From: Phycisphaerales bacterium
GTDB lineage: Bacteria; Planctomycetota; Phycisphaerae; Tepidisphaerales; Tepidisphaeraceae
DNA: 44,270 nt
Assembly (NCBI GenBank): GCA_020853095.1
Contig: JADYZN010000063.1
Coordinates: forward strand, 1 to 44,270
Direction of reading: 5' to 3'
Both the position numbers and the translations under genes were made by a program. Below, one piece after another: positions 1 to 4,596 of the stretch (positions within the stretch are counted from its first letter, which is position 1; each line of letters opens with the position of its first letter). The notes beneath the pieces are model-generated. The model worked only from the letters and a program-made list of their open reading frames with translations, was not told where the DNA came from and did no database searches.

Positions 1-1800
1 CACCCAGGGGTCAACGATCTGCCGTCGGCCGCGTCATCGCGGGCATCTCCGCTACGCTCCGATGCCCGCGATGACGCATCTGTCATTGAAGCACGTTTTG
101 CCTGCAAAGGGAATATACGAGGGGTCATTGGCTTTGTCACGAACGCATCGTTCATCGACGGCAATGCACTTGACGGACTGCGCGCCTGCCTGACCGACGA
201 GTTCACCAGCATCTACGTCTTCAACCTGCGGGGGAATCAGCGGACTAGCGGCGAACTTTCCCGACAGGAAGGCGGGAAAATCTTCGGCTCCGGAAGCCGC
301 GCGCCCATCGCCATCACGCTACTGGTGAAGAACCCGTCCAGGAAGGCCCCGGCCACGCTTCGCTACCACGACATCGGCGACTATCTGGACCGCAACGAAA
401 AGCTCAAGATCATCCGCAACTTCGCCAGCATCGGCGGCATCGACACCGCGAAGAAATGGACGGTGCTCACGCCCAACGCGGAATACGACTGGATCAACCA
501 GCGCAACCCGGCGTTCGACGCATTCTTCCCAATGGGGGACAAGAGCGACGAAGCGCCGACAGTCTTGTTCGAGAGCTACAGCCAAGGAATCAACTCTGCT
601 CGCGCCGCATGGGTCTTCAACTTCAAAAGGCTGAGCGTAACCGAGAACGTGTCGCGGATGATCGACTTCTACAATCAGGAAACGGAACGGTATGAGTCCG
701 CAAGCGCTGGGGTATCAAAGAACGACCGGCCGGATGTCGATTCCTTGGTCTCTAGCGACCCAAAGAAAATCAGTTGGGCGCGCGGTCTCAAACAGCAGTT
801 GGAACGATACAAGCGACTTGAGTTCGAAGAGAAGTCGCTCACGGTTTCACTGTATCGACCATTTTGCAAGCAGTGGGTGTATTTCAACCGCAACTTGAAC
901 GAGATGGTGTATCGCTTGCCGAGCATCTTCCCGGTACCGGGTGCTCGCAACCTCGTGATCGCGCTTACGGGAAAAGGGGTCTCCAAAGAGCCGACGGCGT
1001 GCGTCGTCGATTGCGTCCCCGATGTCCAGTTCGAGGCGAACGGACAATGCTTCCCACTCTACCTCTACGAACCCGCCGAAGAATCCGGCAAGCTCGACCT
1101 CGGCAAGAGCGACGGCGAGATCATCGACGGCTATCGCCGTCGGGACGCGATTACGGATGGGATTCTGAAGACCTTCCGCGCGGCGTATGGCAAGGGCGTG
1201 AGCAAGGAGGACATTTTCTATTACGTCTATGGCGTGCTGCATTCGCCGGAGTATCGCAGGCGTTTCGCGGCGGACCTGAAGAAGATGCTGCCGCGGATTC
1301 CCCTGACGAAAGAGGCGAAGGATTTCAAGGCGTTCGCGGATAGCGGGCGCGAGCTGGCCAAGTGGCATTTGAATTACGAGACGGTGCAGCCGTGGCCGGT
1401 GGAGGAGATTCACGACAAGCTCGACCTGGGGTTGGAAGAAACCTACAAGGTGCAGAAGATGACCTTCGCCCGCCCGACGCCCGCGCAGAAGGCCGCGGGG
1501 GCCAAATGGGACAAGACGAAGATCATCTACAACAGCCACATCACAATCAGCAAAATCCCCCTCGATGCGTATGAGTACATCGTCAACGGCAAACCGGCGA
1601 TCGAGTGGGTGATGGAGCGGTATCAGGTGACGCGCGATAAGGACAGCGGGATCGTCAACGATCCCAATGACTGGTGCAAAGAGCACGATCAGCCGCGCTA
1701 CATCATCGATTTGATCGGGCGTGTCGTGCGGGTAAGCATCGAGACGATGAAGATCGTGAAGACCCTCCCCGCGCTCAACGAGATCGCTCGGCCGACGTGA
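1..1800 (+). CDS. Type ISP restriction-modification enzyme, C-terminal part (5' partial or truncated)
   Basis: The frame is open from base 1 to the TGA at 1798-1800. From about base 118 it reads like the late methylase and target-recognition part of type ISP (LlaBIII-like) single-chain restriction-modification enzymes: GVIGFVTNASFIDG, then YVFNLRGNQRTSGE, then KIFGSGSRAPIAITLLVKNP. The rest, to ARPT at the end, fits the family's C-terminal specificity domain. In full-length members the nuclease, helicase and NPPY methylase motifs lie upstream and are not in this window. The first ~38 codons do not resemble the family and contain a perfect palindrome at 31-77. The gene may therefore be a 5'-truncated remnant and not simply cut by the window edge. 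No good in-frame ATG precedes the conserved part; the GTG at 325 is internal to it. Family call is confident; functional state is not. Confidence 0.8.
   Translation, partial: HPGVNDLPSAASSRASPLRSDARDDASVIEARFACKGNIRGVIGFVTNASFIDGNALDGLRACLTDEFTSIYVFNLRGNQRTSGELSRQEGGKIFGSGSRAPIAITLLVKNPSRKAPATLRYHDIGDYLDRNEKLKIIRNFASIGGIDTAKKWTVLTPNAEYDWINQRNPAFDAFFPMGDKSDEAPTVLFESYSQGINSARAAWVFNFKRLSVTENVSRMIDFYNQETERYESASAGVSKNDRPDVDSLVSSDPKKISWARGLKQQLERYKRLEFEEKSLTVSLYRPFCKQWVYFNRNLNEMVYRLPSIFPVPGARNLVIALTGKGVSKEPTACVVDCVPDVQFEANGQCFPLYLYEPAEESGKLDLGKSDGEIIDGYRRRDAITDGILKTFRAAYGKGVSKEDIFYYVYGVLHSPEYRRRFAADLKKMLPRIPLTKEAKDFKAFADSGRELAKWHLNYETVQPWPVEEIHDKLDLGLEETYKVQKMTFARPTPAQKAAGAKWDKTKIIYNSHITISKIPLDAYEYIVNGKPAIEWVMERYQVTRDKDSGIVNDPNDWCKEHDQPRYIIDLIGRVVRVSIETMKIVKTLPALNEIARPT
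31..77. repeat. 16-bp perfect inverted repeat inside the type ISP frame
   Basis: The arm at 31-46 (GCGTCATCGCGGGCAT) is exactly repeated in reverse complement at 62-77, with a 15-base loop. It resembles REP-like or palindromic insertion elements. It lies in an open frame just before the point where similarity to the restriction enzyme begins. Confidence 0.8.
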
Positions 1801-2120: not shown

Positions 2121-2612
2121 CTATTCAGGGGAAACACCTCGGCTTTTTCCCTCCTCCTCATTTCTTTTTTTCTCCGCGGCATCCAGCCATTCCGCGATGT
2201 TCTTATTTACCGTTATTACAGACCATAGTACGAACCCAACGCTAACCAGCGCCGCGAAGAGACAACTGGCCGCAGCGAGCCAGTGATGAACAAGGCCGAC
2301 CGTGACTTGAAGGAGAGACGTTATCAAACAGCAGAGAATGGCGCAGAACAGCCTCTGTCGAAGATTACACAGCGGGCCATAGTATGGGAGATCGTTCTTG
2401 ATCGTCCTGAGTTCGGAAATCATCTTTATATAATGATCGGTGTCGTATACGTCTCGCTTCATGGTCGCGACAATGAAAGTTTTCATCGCGAACAGAAAAG
2501 CGCTGGCCGTGAGGAAGCCGGAAAACAAAGCAGGCCGAAGCCTGTCGTACAGAACCCAGAAGGATTCTCCCGACGTCATCGTCTCGGTGAATTGGCTTAG
2601 AAGCCCCAGCAT
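2121..2612 (-). CDS. Small three-helix membrane protein of unknown function
   Basis: A 163-residue protein. Three hydrophobic stretches are visible, at about residues 28-48, 88-108 and 112-134, with a hydrophilic segment between the first and second and a highly charged C-terminal tail (EKKRNEEEGK). This suggests an inner-membrane protein with its tail in the cytoplasm. It lies 9 bp downstream of the 308-residue gene and is probably co-transcribed with it. I do not recognise a family. A small membrane protein beside a soluble partner next to restriction-modification remnants is an arrangement often seen in phage-defence sets, but that role is inference only. Confidence 0.65.
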   Translation of the reverse strand: MLGLLSQFTETMTSGESFWVLYDRLRPALFSGFLTASAFLFAMKTFIVATMKRDVYDTDHYIKMISELRTIKNDLPYYGPLCNLRQRLFCAILCCLITSLLQVTVGLVHHWLAAASCLFAALVSVGFVLWSVITVNKNIAEWLDAAEKKRNEEEGKSRGVSPE

Positions 2613-2621
2613 GAAAGCCTC

Positions 2622-3548
2622 CTATGAATGGGACGGCTTGTGCATTCGGGCGTGGTTTTCCTTGCTCCCGGCAACCTTGAGCAGCACTTGAAGGCAGTGC
2701 GCTTCCTTTATTTTTCCCAGATCAATTTCGATTGTCTTCGCAAGGTCGTCGTAGTCGGCTTCTGCCAGAACGTCCGGGTTGTTCGTCAGGCGCACCACCT
2801 GTTCCAGCCCGCTGGAATCCCGTCCTTCGATGCGTCCCTTCGTTAACCTCTTGGATTCAATAATAGAAACCAGTTGATCCCGGATGCTCGCGACGCTCCA
2901 GTCTTTCTTGAAACGCAGGGTATGGGACTCCTTCTTGACGGCGTCCCGCAGAGGCGTGAATCCATTTCCATCAACGGTGAGAGTTGCAAAGTCAAATTCA
3001 AAGCTTTTGATTCTGTCAAGATCCTTGAGAATCTCATTCAAAGTTTCCTGACGGTAGATGGGAACGTACTTCAAGCTGGGCCGGTACTTTTTCTCAATTG
3101 CTTTGACTTCTTTCTTTGACGCACCGGTTGCAAGCTTGTTCTTTGCCGCAGTCAGGCCCTGTTGTCGAAGTTCATCGTAGGCCAAACGGCACAAGGATGA
3201 AAACTGTCCGACGCTACAGGACTGATGGTAGTGTTGATACAAGCCTCGGCGAGTCTTTTTCACAATCACAAAGAAGTTGAACTCAAACGGACTGGTTCCC
3301 TTCTCCAATTCCGAAACCGTGATGACAATCTTTCCGTTGTTCTCGGCGACCAGCGGCAGGTGCTTCTGATCTTTGATGGTCATGAGCATGCCGCCCCAGT
3401 AATCATCGAGATCACAGACATAAAGCCGTCGGGCGTGATCGCCAAATTCGACCTTCTCGCCGCCCTTTTGGCGTAAGTGGTCCATCAGATTGTCCAATGG
3501 AACAGCTTCCGCAAGTTCCCATTCGAAAGGCATGATTTTCACGCGCAT
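2622..3548 (-). CDS. Unknown 308-residue protein, candidate accessory or defence gene
   Basis: A soluble 308-residue protein with no signal peptide or membrane segment. The N-terminal half (about 1-115) looks beta-rich and includes YVCDLDDYWGGMLMTIKDQK and, near residues 98-114, RGLYQHYHQSCS, a stretch unusually rich in His, Tyr and Cys that could be conserved. A lysine-rich helical segment follows (about 125-160), then a mixed alpha/beta C-terminal half. It is the middle gene of a leftward unit, 72 bp after the DUF2188 gene and 9 bp before the membrane protein. I do not recognise the family with certainty. The context next to restriction-modification remnants suggests an accessory or defence role, which is inference. 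Confidence 0.65.
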   Translation of the reverse strand: MRVKIMPFEWELAEAVPLDNLMDHLRQKGGEKVEFGDHARRLYVCDLDDYWGGMLMTIKDQKHLPLVAENNGKIVITVSELEKGTSPFEFNFFVIVKKTRRGLYQHYHQSCSVGQFSSLCRLAYDELRQQGLTAAKNKLATGASKKEVKAIEKKYRPSLKYVPIYRQETLNEILKDLDRIKSFEFDFATLTVDGNGFTPLRDAVKKESHTLRFKKDWSVASIRDQLVSIIESKRLTKGRIEGRDSSGLEQVVRLTNNPDVLAEADYDDLAKTIEIDLGKIKEAHCLQVLLKVAGSKENHARMHKPSHS

Positions 3549-3620
3549 GAAGACTCCTTCATCCGATTCGCCCGGATTCGCTGGGGGATTGTCGGCTCCG
3601 ACAGCGGCGTTGCCAAGATG

Positions 3621-3851
3621 TCAATGCTTCCGATCCCTCGGCGGATGCGGATCATTCCCATAGCTGTCCTTGTCGCGGATGGTTCCATCGCGGCGGTGGA
3701 TGACGACTTCGGACGATTCGCCGCGCGCGATTCGGCGGGCGGCGGTTTCCGCGGCGCTTTGCGTGCGGTGCTGGCTGGTCACGCGCGCGTTGCCCGCGCC
3801 GCGAACGGCCCAGCCGCCATCACGCGGCACGACGTGCTGGTTTTTTCCCAT
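3621..3851 (-). CDS. DUF2188 family small protein
   Basis: A 76-residue protein beginning MGKNQHVVPRDGGWAV. It continues with a GxGN/T turn, the helix QSAAETAARRIA, the strand SEVVIHRRDG and the tail IRDKDSYGNDP. This matches the whole length of the DUF2188 family, small basic proteins of unknown biochemical role with an alpha/beta fold resembling small nucleic-acid-binding domains. The ATG at 3849-3851 is chosen because the family starts exactly here and GGAAAGG lies just upstream; a longer frame extends to 4118 but its extra residues look non-coding. It is the first gene of the leftward unit that includes the 308- and 163-residue proteins. Confidence 0.85.
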   Translation of the reverse strand: MGKNQHVVPRDGGWAVRGAGNARVTSQHRTQSAAETAARRIARGESSEVVIHRRDGTIRDKDSYGNDPHPPRDRKH

Positions 3852-4246
3852 GAGTAAACCTTTCCGGAGTGTCCCGCCCGGCGAAGTGCGGCCGTGCTTT
3901 GCCGGCCCGGCCCGCGCATCCATGCCCGCCCGTGAGAAACCCCAATGTGCAGCCCCATTAAGCCGACTCAGCCAGATGCCGTCAACACAAGATGCGGGGA
4001 AAAATAAAATTGTTTGCACGAGATGTGGTGTCTCCGGCACGACAGAATTGACCCATTTCCATGCCCATCGGAGTTCATCGACCTTCATCCGTGGCGAATC
4101 GTTCCGGCTTGACGCCAACCTCCCTTCGCGGGGCCAGGACGCCCCCGATAAAACCGCCGCTGGCGGAGTTGCCAGACCATCGTCCGGGAAAAGCGGCCCG
4201 ACGGGAGAGGAATCCGATGCGCCGGCCGAGGCGGGAAGGTCTTATC
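3852..4246. other. Non-coding region upstream of the DUF2188 unit
   Basis: About 395 bases separate the DUF2188 gene from the 21-bp tandem array. It contains a plausible leftward promoter at 3957-3985. A rightward frame is open across it into the first repeat unit, but it has no recognisable domain and its composition is not convincingly coding. It may be decayed sequence belonging to the remnant at 4384-4596. Confidence 0.35.
3957..3985 (-). promoter_or_regulatory. Candidate sigma70-type promoter for the DUF2188 unit
   Basis: On the minus strand TTGACG (3980-3985) is followed, after 17 bases, by CTTAAT (3957-3962). Transcription would begin near 3950, about 100 bases before the DUF2188 start. 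The match is by eye only. Confidence 0.35.
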
Positions 4247-4393
4247 CCGAGGAATAAGACTCTCCCGCCGAGGAATAAGCCGCTCTTGCCGAGGAATAAG
4301 CGGCTCCCGCCAAGGAGTAAGACTCTCTTGCCGAGGAGTAAGACTCTCCCGCCGAGGAGTAAGACTCTCCCGCCGAGGAGTAAGTCCCTCCCG
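4247..4393. repeat. 21-bp tandem repeat, seven copies
   Basis: Seven head-to-tail copies of a 21-base unit, typified by CCGAGGAGTAAGACTCTCCC plus one base, start at 4247, 4268, 4289, 4310, 4331, 4352 and 4373. The first three copies read GAATAAG and the last four GAGTAAG. In several units the core GAGTAAGACTC is itself a small palindrome. Because 21 is a multiple of 3, other frames on both strands stay open, while the frame shared with the flanking remnant has a TAA in every unit. Confidence 0.85.
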
Positions 4394-4596
4394 CCTGGGA
4401 ATTCGTCGGCTCAGCCACCTGCGCCAAGCACGAGATCGTCTTCGCCGACAGCGTCGCCGCCGGACAGCAGGTCTGGATCCGCTGCGCGTGGATCAACAGG
4501 AAACAGCAGGCCGGCCCGTTCAGCGAGCCGATCACCACCAACATTCAGGGTGGCGGATCGGCCGTGACGGGACAGAACATCAAGATCGCGGCGTAG
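4384..4596 (+). pseudogene. C-terminal remnant resembling a fibronectin type III-like domain protein
   Basis: From the last repeat stop (TAA at 4381-4383) to the TAG at 4594-4596 one frame reads WEFVGSATCAKHEIVFAD, then VWIRCAWINRKQQAGPFSEP, then NIQGGGSAVTGQNIKIAA. The aromatic-rich VWxRxxWxNxxxxxGPxSEP pattern is that of the last fibronectin III-like strand region in proteins common in planctomycete and verrucomicrobial genomes. There is no start codon with a ribosome site, and upstream the frame runs into the stop-bearing tandem array. I infer the surviving tail of a broken gene; the family assignment is tentative. Confidence 0.4.

What the first reader, a model, noticed from the sequence alone, without database searches (positions are those of the whole stretch)
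2121..3985. Three-gene unit (DUF2188, 308-aa unknown, three-helix membrane protein) beside restriction remnants
The genes are closely spaced, share a plausible promoter, and combine a small conserved protein, a soluble protein with an unusual RGLYQHYHQSCS stretch, and a membrane protein. Soluble-plus-membrane pairs are common among phage-defence systems, and the neighbouring genes are type ISP and type I restriction pieces. The 308- and 163-residue families are unknown to me.
Basis: inference. Interest (0 to 1): 0.5.

Follow-up and report, generated by a model that had tools for sequence, protein, structure and literature searches.

The report
RexAB-type phage-exclusion pair outside a prophage
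Two adjacent bacterial genes look like a distant relative of the Rex system with which phage lambda makes its host shut out other phages, but here the pair sits in a bacterial chromosome beside a DNA-restriction gene rather than in a prophage, and its membrane partner has lost one of the usual four membrane helices.

Summary
The unit is two genes: a 308-aa soluble protein (2622-3548, minus strand) and, 9 bp downstream, a 163-aa membrane protein (2121-2612). In relatives the second always follows the first (165 of 170 fetched loci; the five misses are two contig ends, one spurious hit and one broken copy fetched twice). The DUF2188 gene belongs to none of 69 relatives' loci and differs in composition. 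The AlphaFold2 model of the 308-aa protein has phage lambda RexA as its best match in the PDB (Foldseek E 6.8e-6; VIA-align Z 11.3), then RdgC, the fold relative already published for RexA. Best explanation: a RexAB-type abortive-infection pair, in which a DNA-binding sensor triggers a membrane effector. The window copy and two other chromosomal copies sit beside restriction genes, and the window copy is not in a recognisable prophage. The window belongs to a clade of four whose membrane protein lacks the first helix. Sequence-level homology to lambda RexA or RexB was tested and not found, and function is untested. New variant of a known kind; not in PADLOC, Pfam or NCBIfam.

The parts
2622..3548 (-). 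308-aa soluble RexA-like protein ('A'); AAGGAG ribosome-binding site before the ATG
   Evidence: ORF; phrog_2802 E 1.3e-43; AlphaFold2 pLDDT 84.2, pTM 0.71; best PDB match lambda RexA 8twq E 6.8e-6 and Z 11.3; RBS read
3213..3248 (-). codons of the conserved motif RGLYQHYHQSCS (residues 101-112), predicted last strand of the N-terminal sheet plus the turn into the next helix
   Evidence: conserved columns G102, Y104, C111; secondary structure E101-107, H113-137
2121..2612 (-). 163-aa RexB-like membrane protein ('B'), three transmembrane helices, lacking the first helix of most relatives; AGGAGG ribosome-binding site
   Evidence: profile of 25 sequences; 182 bits; no in-frame N-terminal extension is possible because the stop of A lies in the same frame just upstream
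2613..2621 (-). 9-bp gap between A and B, implying co-transcription and perhaps translational coupling
   Evidence: in most relatives the two genes overlap or nearly touch
3588..3616 (-). promoter-like site upstream of the pair (TTGGCA-17-GACAAT), weak
   Evidence: consensus scan, near chance
3621..3851 (-). DUF2188 protein (76 aa); neighbour, not part of the pair
   Evidence: Pfam E 3.3e-23, PADLOC PDC-S16 E 5.2e-35; absent from 69 of 69 relatives' loci
1..1800 (+). C-terminal part (599 aa) of a type ISP restriction-modification enzyme, cut by the contig start; neighbour
   Evidence: PF18135 E 4.3e-115; only copy in the genome

Best explanation
The two genes are a RexAB-type phage-exclusion (abortive-infection) pair. 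Shown here: A has the predicted fold of lambda RexA and RdgC; B is a small polytopic membrane protein with no recognisable enzyme domain; B always follows A. Inferred: A dimerises as a clamp on DNA and senses abnormal DNA or protein-DNA complexes made during phage replication; activated A then acts on B, whose oligomer permeabilises or depolarises the inner membrane, so the infected cell stops growing before phage can be made. In the window the pair has been captured by the bacterial chromosome and placed beside a restriction enzyme, and B has lost the first of its usual four membrane helices.
For: Best PDB match of the model of A among 350,542 chains is lambda RexA (Foldseek E 6.8e-6, prob 1.00), followed by two RdgC chains (1.2e-5, 4.7e-5), and these are the only three chains at E <= 0.001. 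VIA-align gives RexA Z 11.3 over 238 residues and next best Z 7.7; the lower rows include Iml3, CENP-N and RdgC, and RdgC, IML3 and CHL4 are the relatives published for RexA (PMC11077077, section read). The domain order, an N-terminal sheet domain completed by C-terminal helices and split by a sheet domain at about 160-253, is that described for RexA. Obligate pairing: 65 of 69 loci plus 100 of 101, including all 68 loci found by searching with B. Gene order A then B as in rexA-rexB. A CI-like repressor (HTH plus S24) lies upstream in phage loci L003 and L006. Related pairs occur in prophages: mEp460-type phages and 218 of 5426 E. coli genomes. Host copies beside restriction genes: window, G369 with HsdM, HsdS and GmrSD, L009 with HsdS. 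P. putida RexAB, assigned on the same kind of evidence (fold and gene order), was shown by others to defend and to damage membranes (PMC12894663).
Against: No sequence homology to lambda RexA or RexB was detected: hhalign scores were reached by 28 of 100 column-shuffled RexA controls and 61 of 100 RexB controls, and the reversed RexA control scored higher than the real one (19.6 against 15.8). The RexA superposition has rmsd 17.4 and whole-chain TM-scores are low (0.26-0.37), perhaps because the domains are rotated, which I did not test domain by domain. B of the window has three membrane helices; P. putida RexB has four. B has no significant fold match. The published P. putida RexB was not found among my loci by its seven reported residues, so the tested system is not shown to belong to this sequence family. 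No function test exists for any member known to me. In the RexA paper, DNA binding did not track with exclusion. Four of the ten bacterial copies examined lie among ordinary genes with neither phage nor restriction neighbours in the genes scanned.
Confidence: 0.65

Rival explanations
1. Butters-type wiring: A is the cytosolic effector and B only holds it inactive at the membrane; infection releases A.
For: Described for mycobacteriophage Butters gp30/gp31 (as summarised in PMC12894663). Loss of a membrane helix in the window clade is easier to accept if B is an anchor rather than a channel.
Against: B is well conserved, with invariant residues in the membrane part such as Q102, G106 and L107, more than an anchor needs; lambda, Sbash, CarolAnn and P. 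putida systems use B as effector.
Confidence: 0.12
2. The pair mainly tunes phage lysogeny or another DNA transaction (as RexA biases the lambda switch), and exclusion is a side effect; the chromosomal copies are relics.
For: The RexA authors say it is unknown whether exclusion is the true function of Rex homologues. Some phage relatives lie beside a repressor.
Against: Host copies stand outside recognisable prophages with intact reading frames, several beside restriction genes; in the window no phage genes were identified among the nine neighbours scanned.
Confidence: 0.13
3. A is an RdgC-like recombination or repair protein tethered to the membrane by B, with no role against phages.
For: RdgC is the second-best fold match, close to RexA.
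Against: Patchy distribution (2 convincing copies in 392 genomes of the phylum, 3 of 398 in the Pseudomonas sample with one broken), phage carriage and foreign composition do not suit housekeeping.
Confidence: 0.06
4. A three-gene defence unit that includes DUF2188.
For: Same strand, 72 bp apart; DUF2188 matches PADLOC candidate PDC-S16.
Against: DUF2188 in 0 of 69 relatives' loci; host-like GC3 against the pair's low GC3.
Confidence: 0.03

Closest known systems
Phage lambda RexA/RexB
   Same: Predicted fold of A (rank 1 in PDB); gene order A then B, adjacent and same strand; soluble plus membrane partner
   Different: No detectable sequence homology; window B has three membrane helices; the window pair is not in a recognisable prophage
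Pseudomonas putida RexABpp (PP_5643/PP_5644)
   Same: RexA-fold DNA-binding protein plus small membrane protein, downstream of a CI-like repressor by a gene or two, as in L003 and L006
   Different: Its reported RexB residues match none of my loci, so same sequence family is not shown; four helices; proven function
Actinobacteriophage Rex-like pairs (Sbash gp30/gp31, CarolAnn gp44/gp43, Butters gp30/gp31)
   Same: Two-gene soluble plus membrane exclusion systems (read about)
   Different: Not compared by sequence here; prophage-borne
RdgC
   Same: Second-best fold match of A (E 1.2e-5)
   Different: Chromosomal recombination protein (described); no membrane partner that I know of
Kiwa (KwaA/KwaB)
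   Same: Membrane plus DNA-binding protein pair (recalled)
   Different: No DUF4868 (KwaB, recalled) in Pfam and no PADLOC match for either protein at E <= 1

Membership tests
RexAB exclusion systems | Soluble partner with the RexA/RdgC two-domain fold | tested here: met
   AlphaFold2 model pLDDT 84.2; RexA rank 1, E 6.8e-6, Z 11.3, rmsd 17.4 over 238 residues; a predicted fold, not a solved one
RexAB exclusion systems | Small membrane partner encoded directly downstream on the same strand | tested here: met
   9-bp gap in the window; 65 of 69 and 100 of 101 relatives' loci
RexAB exclusion systems | Four transmembrane helices in RexB (usual, not shown to be essential) | tested here: not met
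   Window B has three; 39 of 43 distinct cores have the extra hydrophobic N-terminal segment, 4 do not. Hence filed as a variant, RexAB-type, not as a plain member
RexAB exclusion systems | Sequence homology to lambda RexA and RexB | tested here: inconclusive
   hhalign no better than shuffled controls; thin lambda-side profiles of 4 rows each
RexAB exclusion systems | Position in a prophage near the CI repressor (usual, not essential) | tested here: not met
   No phage genes among nine window neighbours scanned by Pfam; met for phage relatives L003 and L006
RexAB exclusion systems | Non-specific DNA binding and dimerisation of A | not testable with these tools
   Needs protein work
RexAB exclusion systems | Phage exclusion needing both genes, with B-dependent membrane damage | not testable with these tools
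   Needs phage and growth assays
Kiwa | KwaB DUF4868 domain (link recalled) | tested here: not met
   No such family among Pfam or PADLOC matches of either protein at E <= 1
DUF2188 (PF09954) | Pfam match of the 76-aa protein over the cut-off | tested here: met
   E 3.3e-23, 82 bits against a cut-off of 22
Type ISP restriction-modification | C-terminal specificity domain PF18135 | tested here: met
   E 4.3e-115
Type ISP restriction-modification | N-terminal nuclease, translocase and methylase domains | not testable with these tools
   Lost beyond the contig start; the other methylase gene of the genome (C44) is a separate complete ORF

The most novel reading that the evidence does not exclude
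Rex systems are not only prophage exclusion genes: a branch with a three-helix RexB has been captured by bacterial chromosomes (seen in two planctomycete families) as a stand-alone second line next to restriction enzymes, where the RexA-like clamp senses DNA damaged or left unrestricted by the neighbouring enzyme and triggers a pore that needs only three helices per subunit.
Probability: 0.2. Interest if true: 0.68.

Novelty: new variant of a known kind. Interest (0 to 1): 0.52.

Why it matters
Only five RexAB-like systems had been described by January 2026 according to PMC12894663. Here is a sequence family (phrog_2802) with 43 distinct RexB-like cores, present in 218 of 5426 complete E. coli genomes as two 'hypothetical proteins' and invisible to PADLOC-DB 2.0.0. 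Whether exclusion is the real job of Rex proteins or a by-product of tuning lysogeny is stated as open by the RexA authors. Copies outside recognisable prophages, with no lysis switch to tune, make that question directly testable, and the natural three-helix partner shows which part of the membrane protein may be dispensable.

Tried and rejected
Sequence-level link to lambda RexA and RexB: tried with single sequences, with a four-row RexA family and with 42- and 43-row profiles against four-row RexA/RexB families plus shuffled and reversed controls; all null. A first version of that comparison seems to have run in a global mode and was repeated. PDB sequence searches with A alone or as a profile gave only chance-like hits, among them 3o0z at E 0.0015 over one segment.

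A fold match for B: the top Foldseek rows include NINJ2 and NINJ1 at E 0.6-0.75, and VIA-align put NINJ1 first at Z 10.3 over 106 residues, under the level of about 13 that the tool names for helical bundles. Not used as evidence.

Is the P. putida system in this family? The seven reported RexBpp residues were slid along all frames of all loci then held, with at least 5 of 7 required: no hit. Plasmids: no match to A. Another scan with a Pseudomonas copy found only itself. Type ISP N-terminus on another contig: the one other methylase gene of the genome is a complete separate ORF.

Rows dropped or unsound: the row L055 gave no A under my ORF rule, and L025's partner was first miscalled as a non-membrane ORF (corrected by profile). 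The third phylum hit (G075, E 3.5e-4, one segment) was dropped as spurious. For the trees I used 30 of the 70 rows then held (69 loci and the window). The many near-identical E. coli prophage loci are not independent, hence the 90% clustering. The B tree did not resolve the three-helix group (3 changes, 16% of bootstrap trees with one). The chance figures for restriction neighbours in the report are my own arithmetic, made after seeing the neighbours.

Rfam, tandem-repeat and tRNA tools were not used.
Full report
What is there. The window is the first 44,270 bases of contig C63 of a 3.6-Mb genome. On the minus strand lie a 76-aa DUF2188 protein (3621-3851), a 308-aa protein (2622-3548, 'A') and a 163-aa protein (2121-2612, 'B'). 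A and B are 9 bp apart and each has a good ribosome-binding site; B cannot be longer at its N-terminus because the stop codon of A lies in the same frame just upstream. To the left is a type ISP enzyme, open from base 1 and therefore cut by the contig end rather than a remnant. To the right, the neighbours scanned are host genes: a DUF4838 protein, a metallo-beta-lactamase fold, a GH106-like enzyme, a DUF1559 pseudopilin, an AraC regulator, LepA, an MFS transporter and a kinase-like protein. G000 shares its phylum with G369, which carries 51 PSCyt2 domains, a planctomycete hallmark by my own knowledge, so the host is taken to be a planctomycete; G000 itself has none of these domains.

The unit is two genes. 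Relatives of A were collected from viral contigs, phage records and bacterial genomes. With profiles of A and B, 65 of 69 loci hold both; the four misses are L055 (contig end), L064 (spurious) and L071/L072 (one broken Pseudomonas copy fetched twice). Of 101 further loci 100 hold both, and the miss is a contig end. Searching with B (68 loci) never found B without A. B always follows A on the same strand. These loci are redundant; after clustering, 166 B loci, the window included, give 43 distinct cores. DUF2188 was absent from all 69 loci tested. GC3 of A and B is 0.618 and 0.610, below all 18 other window genes compared (0.647-0.844), whereas DUF2188 has 0.753. So the pair looks acquired and DUF2188 does not look acquired with it.

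What it is. A has no family in Pfam, NCBIfam or PADLOC, but matches phrog_2802 (E 1.3e-43, unknown function). Gene order and sizes suggested lambda RexA and RexB before any structure was computed. The AlphaFold2 model of A from a 27-row alignment of the window protein and loci has pLDDT 84.2 and pTM 0.71. Against 350,542 PDB chains, lambda RexA (8twq) ranks first (E 6.8e-6, probability 1.00) and RdgC second and third (1.2e-5 and 4.7e-5); nothing else reaches 0.001. VIA-align gives RexA Z 11.3 over 238 residues, with the next row at 7.7; its lower rows include Iml3, CENP-N and RdgC. RdgC, IML3 and CHL4 are the structural relatives that the RexA paper reports (PMC11077077, section read), which makes the match more credible than its E-value alone. 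The superposition is poor as a rigid body (rmsd 17.4, TM 0.26). The RexA crystal is a closed form whose domains are thought to rotate, and AlphaFold predicts an open one; a rotated predicted form would give such numbers, but I did not align domains separately.

Limits of the link. Sequence comparison does not support it. Profiles of A and B against lambda-type RexA and RexB families score no better than column-shuffled controls (28 of 100 and 61 of 100 controls reach the real score). For P. putida PP_5643 the published HHpred search did find RexA (probability 98.19), presumably with alignments deeper than mine. B has no significant fold match. I therefore call the pair RexAB-type, by fold of A and by architecture, and do not claim that B is a demonstrated homologue of RexB.

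The membrane partner and its lost helix. In 39 of 43 distinct B cores a strongly hydrophobic segment precedes the conserved core (best 19-residue Kyte-Doolittle mean 1.96 or more). In four it does not: the window 0.41, L063 0.27, L020 and L025 1.29 each. In the tree of A, built from the other protein, these four are one side of a branch with support 98/97, 96% of 200 bootstrap trees need one change, and 0 of 500 shuffles do as well; the B tree does not resolve them. L063 has a very long branch (2.5), so its place is less sure. The window protein keeps three membrane helices (33-51, 90-108, 117-135; model helices 15-56, 79-107, 111-158). The charged stretch between the first two and the charged tail would lie on the same side of the membrane.

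Where it lives. Phages and prophages: in two E. coli phages the pair lies on the strand opposite the late genes, between Q and the lysis genes, and the same pair is in 218 of 5426 complete E. coli genomes, 217 of them at 99% identity or more. In phage loci L003 and L006 a repressor with HTH and S24 domains lies upstream on the same strand, as in lambda and in the P. putida prophage. Three further phage-type loci (L002, L005, L014) have an HTH protein there without an S24 match; in a sixth, L007, none is annotated upstream on its strand, and a 'LexA-like protein' is annotated some 2.6 kb downstream on the other strand. Bacterial genomes: I hold 15 copies (window, L009-L019, L063, L070, and the broken one of G654) and examined the neighbours of 10. 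Three lie beside restriction genes: the window (type ISP), G369 (PD-(D/E)XK nuclease and a kinase/PP2C/VWA trio on one side; HsdM, HsdS and GmrSD downstream, with one unknown gene between) and L009 (HsdS, with one unknown 272-aa gene between). L019 is next to a tyrosine integrase, and L014 is a phage-type contig with much the same gene set as viral contig L002. L010, L011, L015 and L017 lie between ordinary genes in what was scanned (a PIN protein and CcmF; a DEAD helicase; an oligopeptide transporter and a deacetylase-like protein; a hydroxyacylglutathione hydrolase). L013 is undecided, with a ParA-like gene downstream. The type ISP gene is the only one of its family in G000, and G369 has four methylase (PF02384) places. 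By my own arithmetic a random place would fall within 3 kb of such a gene about 0.2% and 0.4% of the time, and up to about 2% in the genome of L009; these figures were made after the fact. In the own phylum 2 of 392 genomes have a convincing copy, in the Pseudomonas sample 3 of 398 with one broken.

How it most likely works. From the Rex systems with experiments (read: PMC12894663 abstract, results sections on PP_5643-5644 and discussion, plus search passages; PMC11077077 abstract and sections on structure, RdgC, homologues and discussion): A dimers bind DNA, A is thought to be activated by phage replication intermediates or phage proteins, and activated A makes B permeabilise the membrane, arresting growth. 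For the present pair the predicted fold of A, the pairing and the membrane nature of B are shown; DNA binding, the trigger, contact between A and B, membrane damage and protection are inferred. Invariant membrane-core residues of B (for example Q102, G106 and L107) are the natural targets for mutation. The main caution is that in lambda, mutants with quite different DNA-binding behaviour all lost exclusion, so DNA binding may not be the sensing step.

What is in print. Searches. The Sbash, CarolAnn and Butters papers were seen only in the search listing and as summarised in PMC12894663. I found no paper that describes phrog_2802 or the mEp460-type pair as Rex-like, nor any Rex system in planctomycetes; the one hit for 'planctomycet' with 'rexab' (listing only) is an analysis of recombination systems, where RexAB means, to my knowledge, an unrelated exonuclease. 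The library holds only openly licensed papers, so absence there is weak evidence.

Noticed in passing
window 4240-4400: A short imperfect tandem repeat (units like GAGGAGTAAGACTCTCCCGCC) read by eye in non-coding-looking sequence next to the DUF2188 gene.
   Followed up: no
G000 contig C44 (L189:5040-8477, minus): A complete 1145-aa fused restriction-methylase-like ORF with an N6 methylase match (E 1.4e-9); the only PF02384 place of the genome.
   Followed up: partly
L087:3552-7748 (minus): A kinase-like, PP2C phosphatase and VWA gene trio beside the RexAB-type pair and type I restriction genes, resembling other such trios that I recall from defence islands.
   Followed up: partly
L009:813-1631: A 272-aa protein without Pfam or PADLOC match between a type I specificity gene and the pair.
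   Followed up: no
E. coli NZ_CP022730.1 1269584-1272117 (hit H17): The E. coli pair is apparently split by an ISApl1 insertion in this strain.
   Followed up: no
L042, L043, L044, L052: E. coli prophage copies in which my ORF call of A is only 258-271 aa while B is intact, suggesting that A can decay first.
   Followed up: no
L150: A very divergent pair: A scores 43 bits and B keeps the core; possibly a bridge to other Rex families.
   Followed up: partly
model of the 163-aa protein (window 2121-2612): Its top, statistically weak, fold look-alikes include ninjurins (NINJ1/NINJ2), which I recall as membrane-rupture proteins.
   Followed up: no
L003:2820-3908, L004:2838-3902 and downstream genes: Variable, membrane-protein-like genes flank the pair on these phage contigs, like a cargo region.
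   Followed up: no
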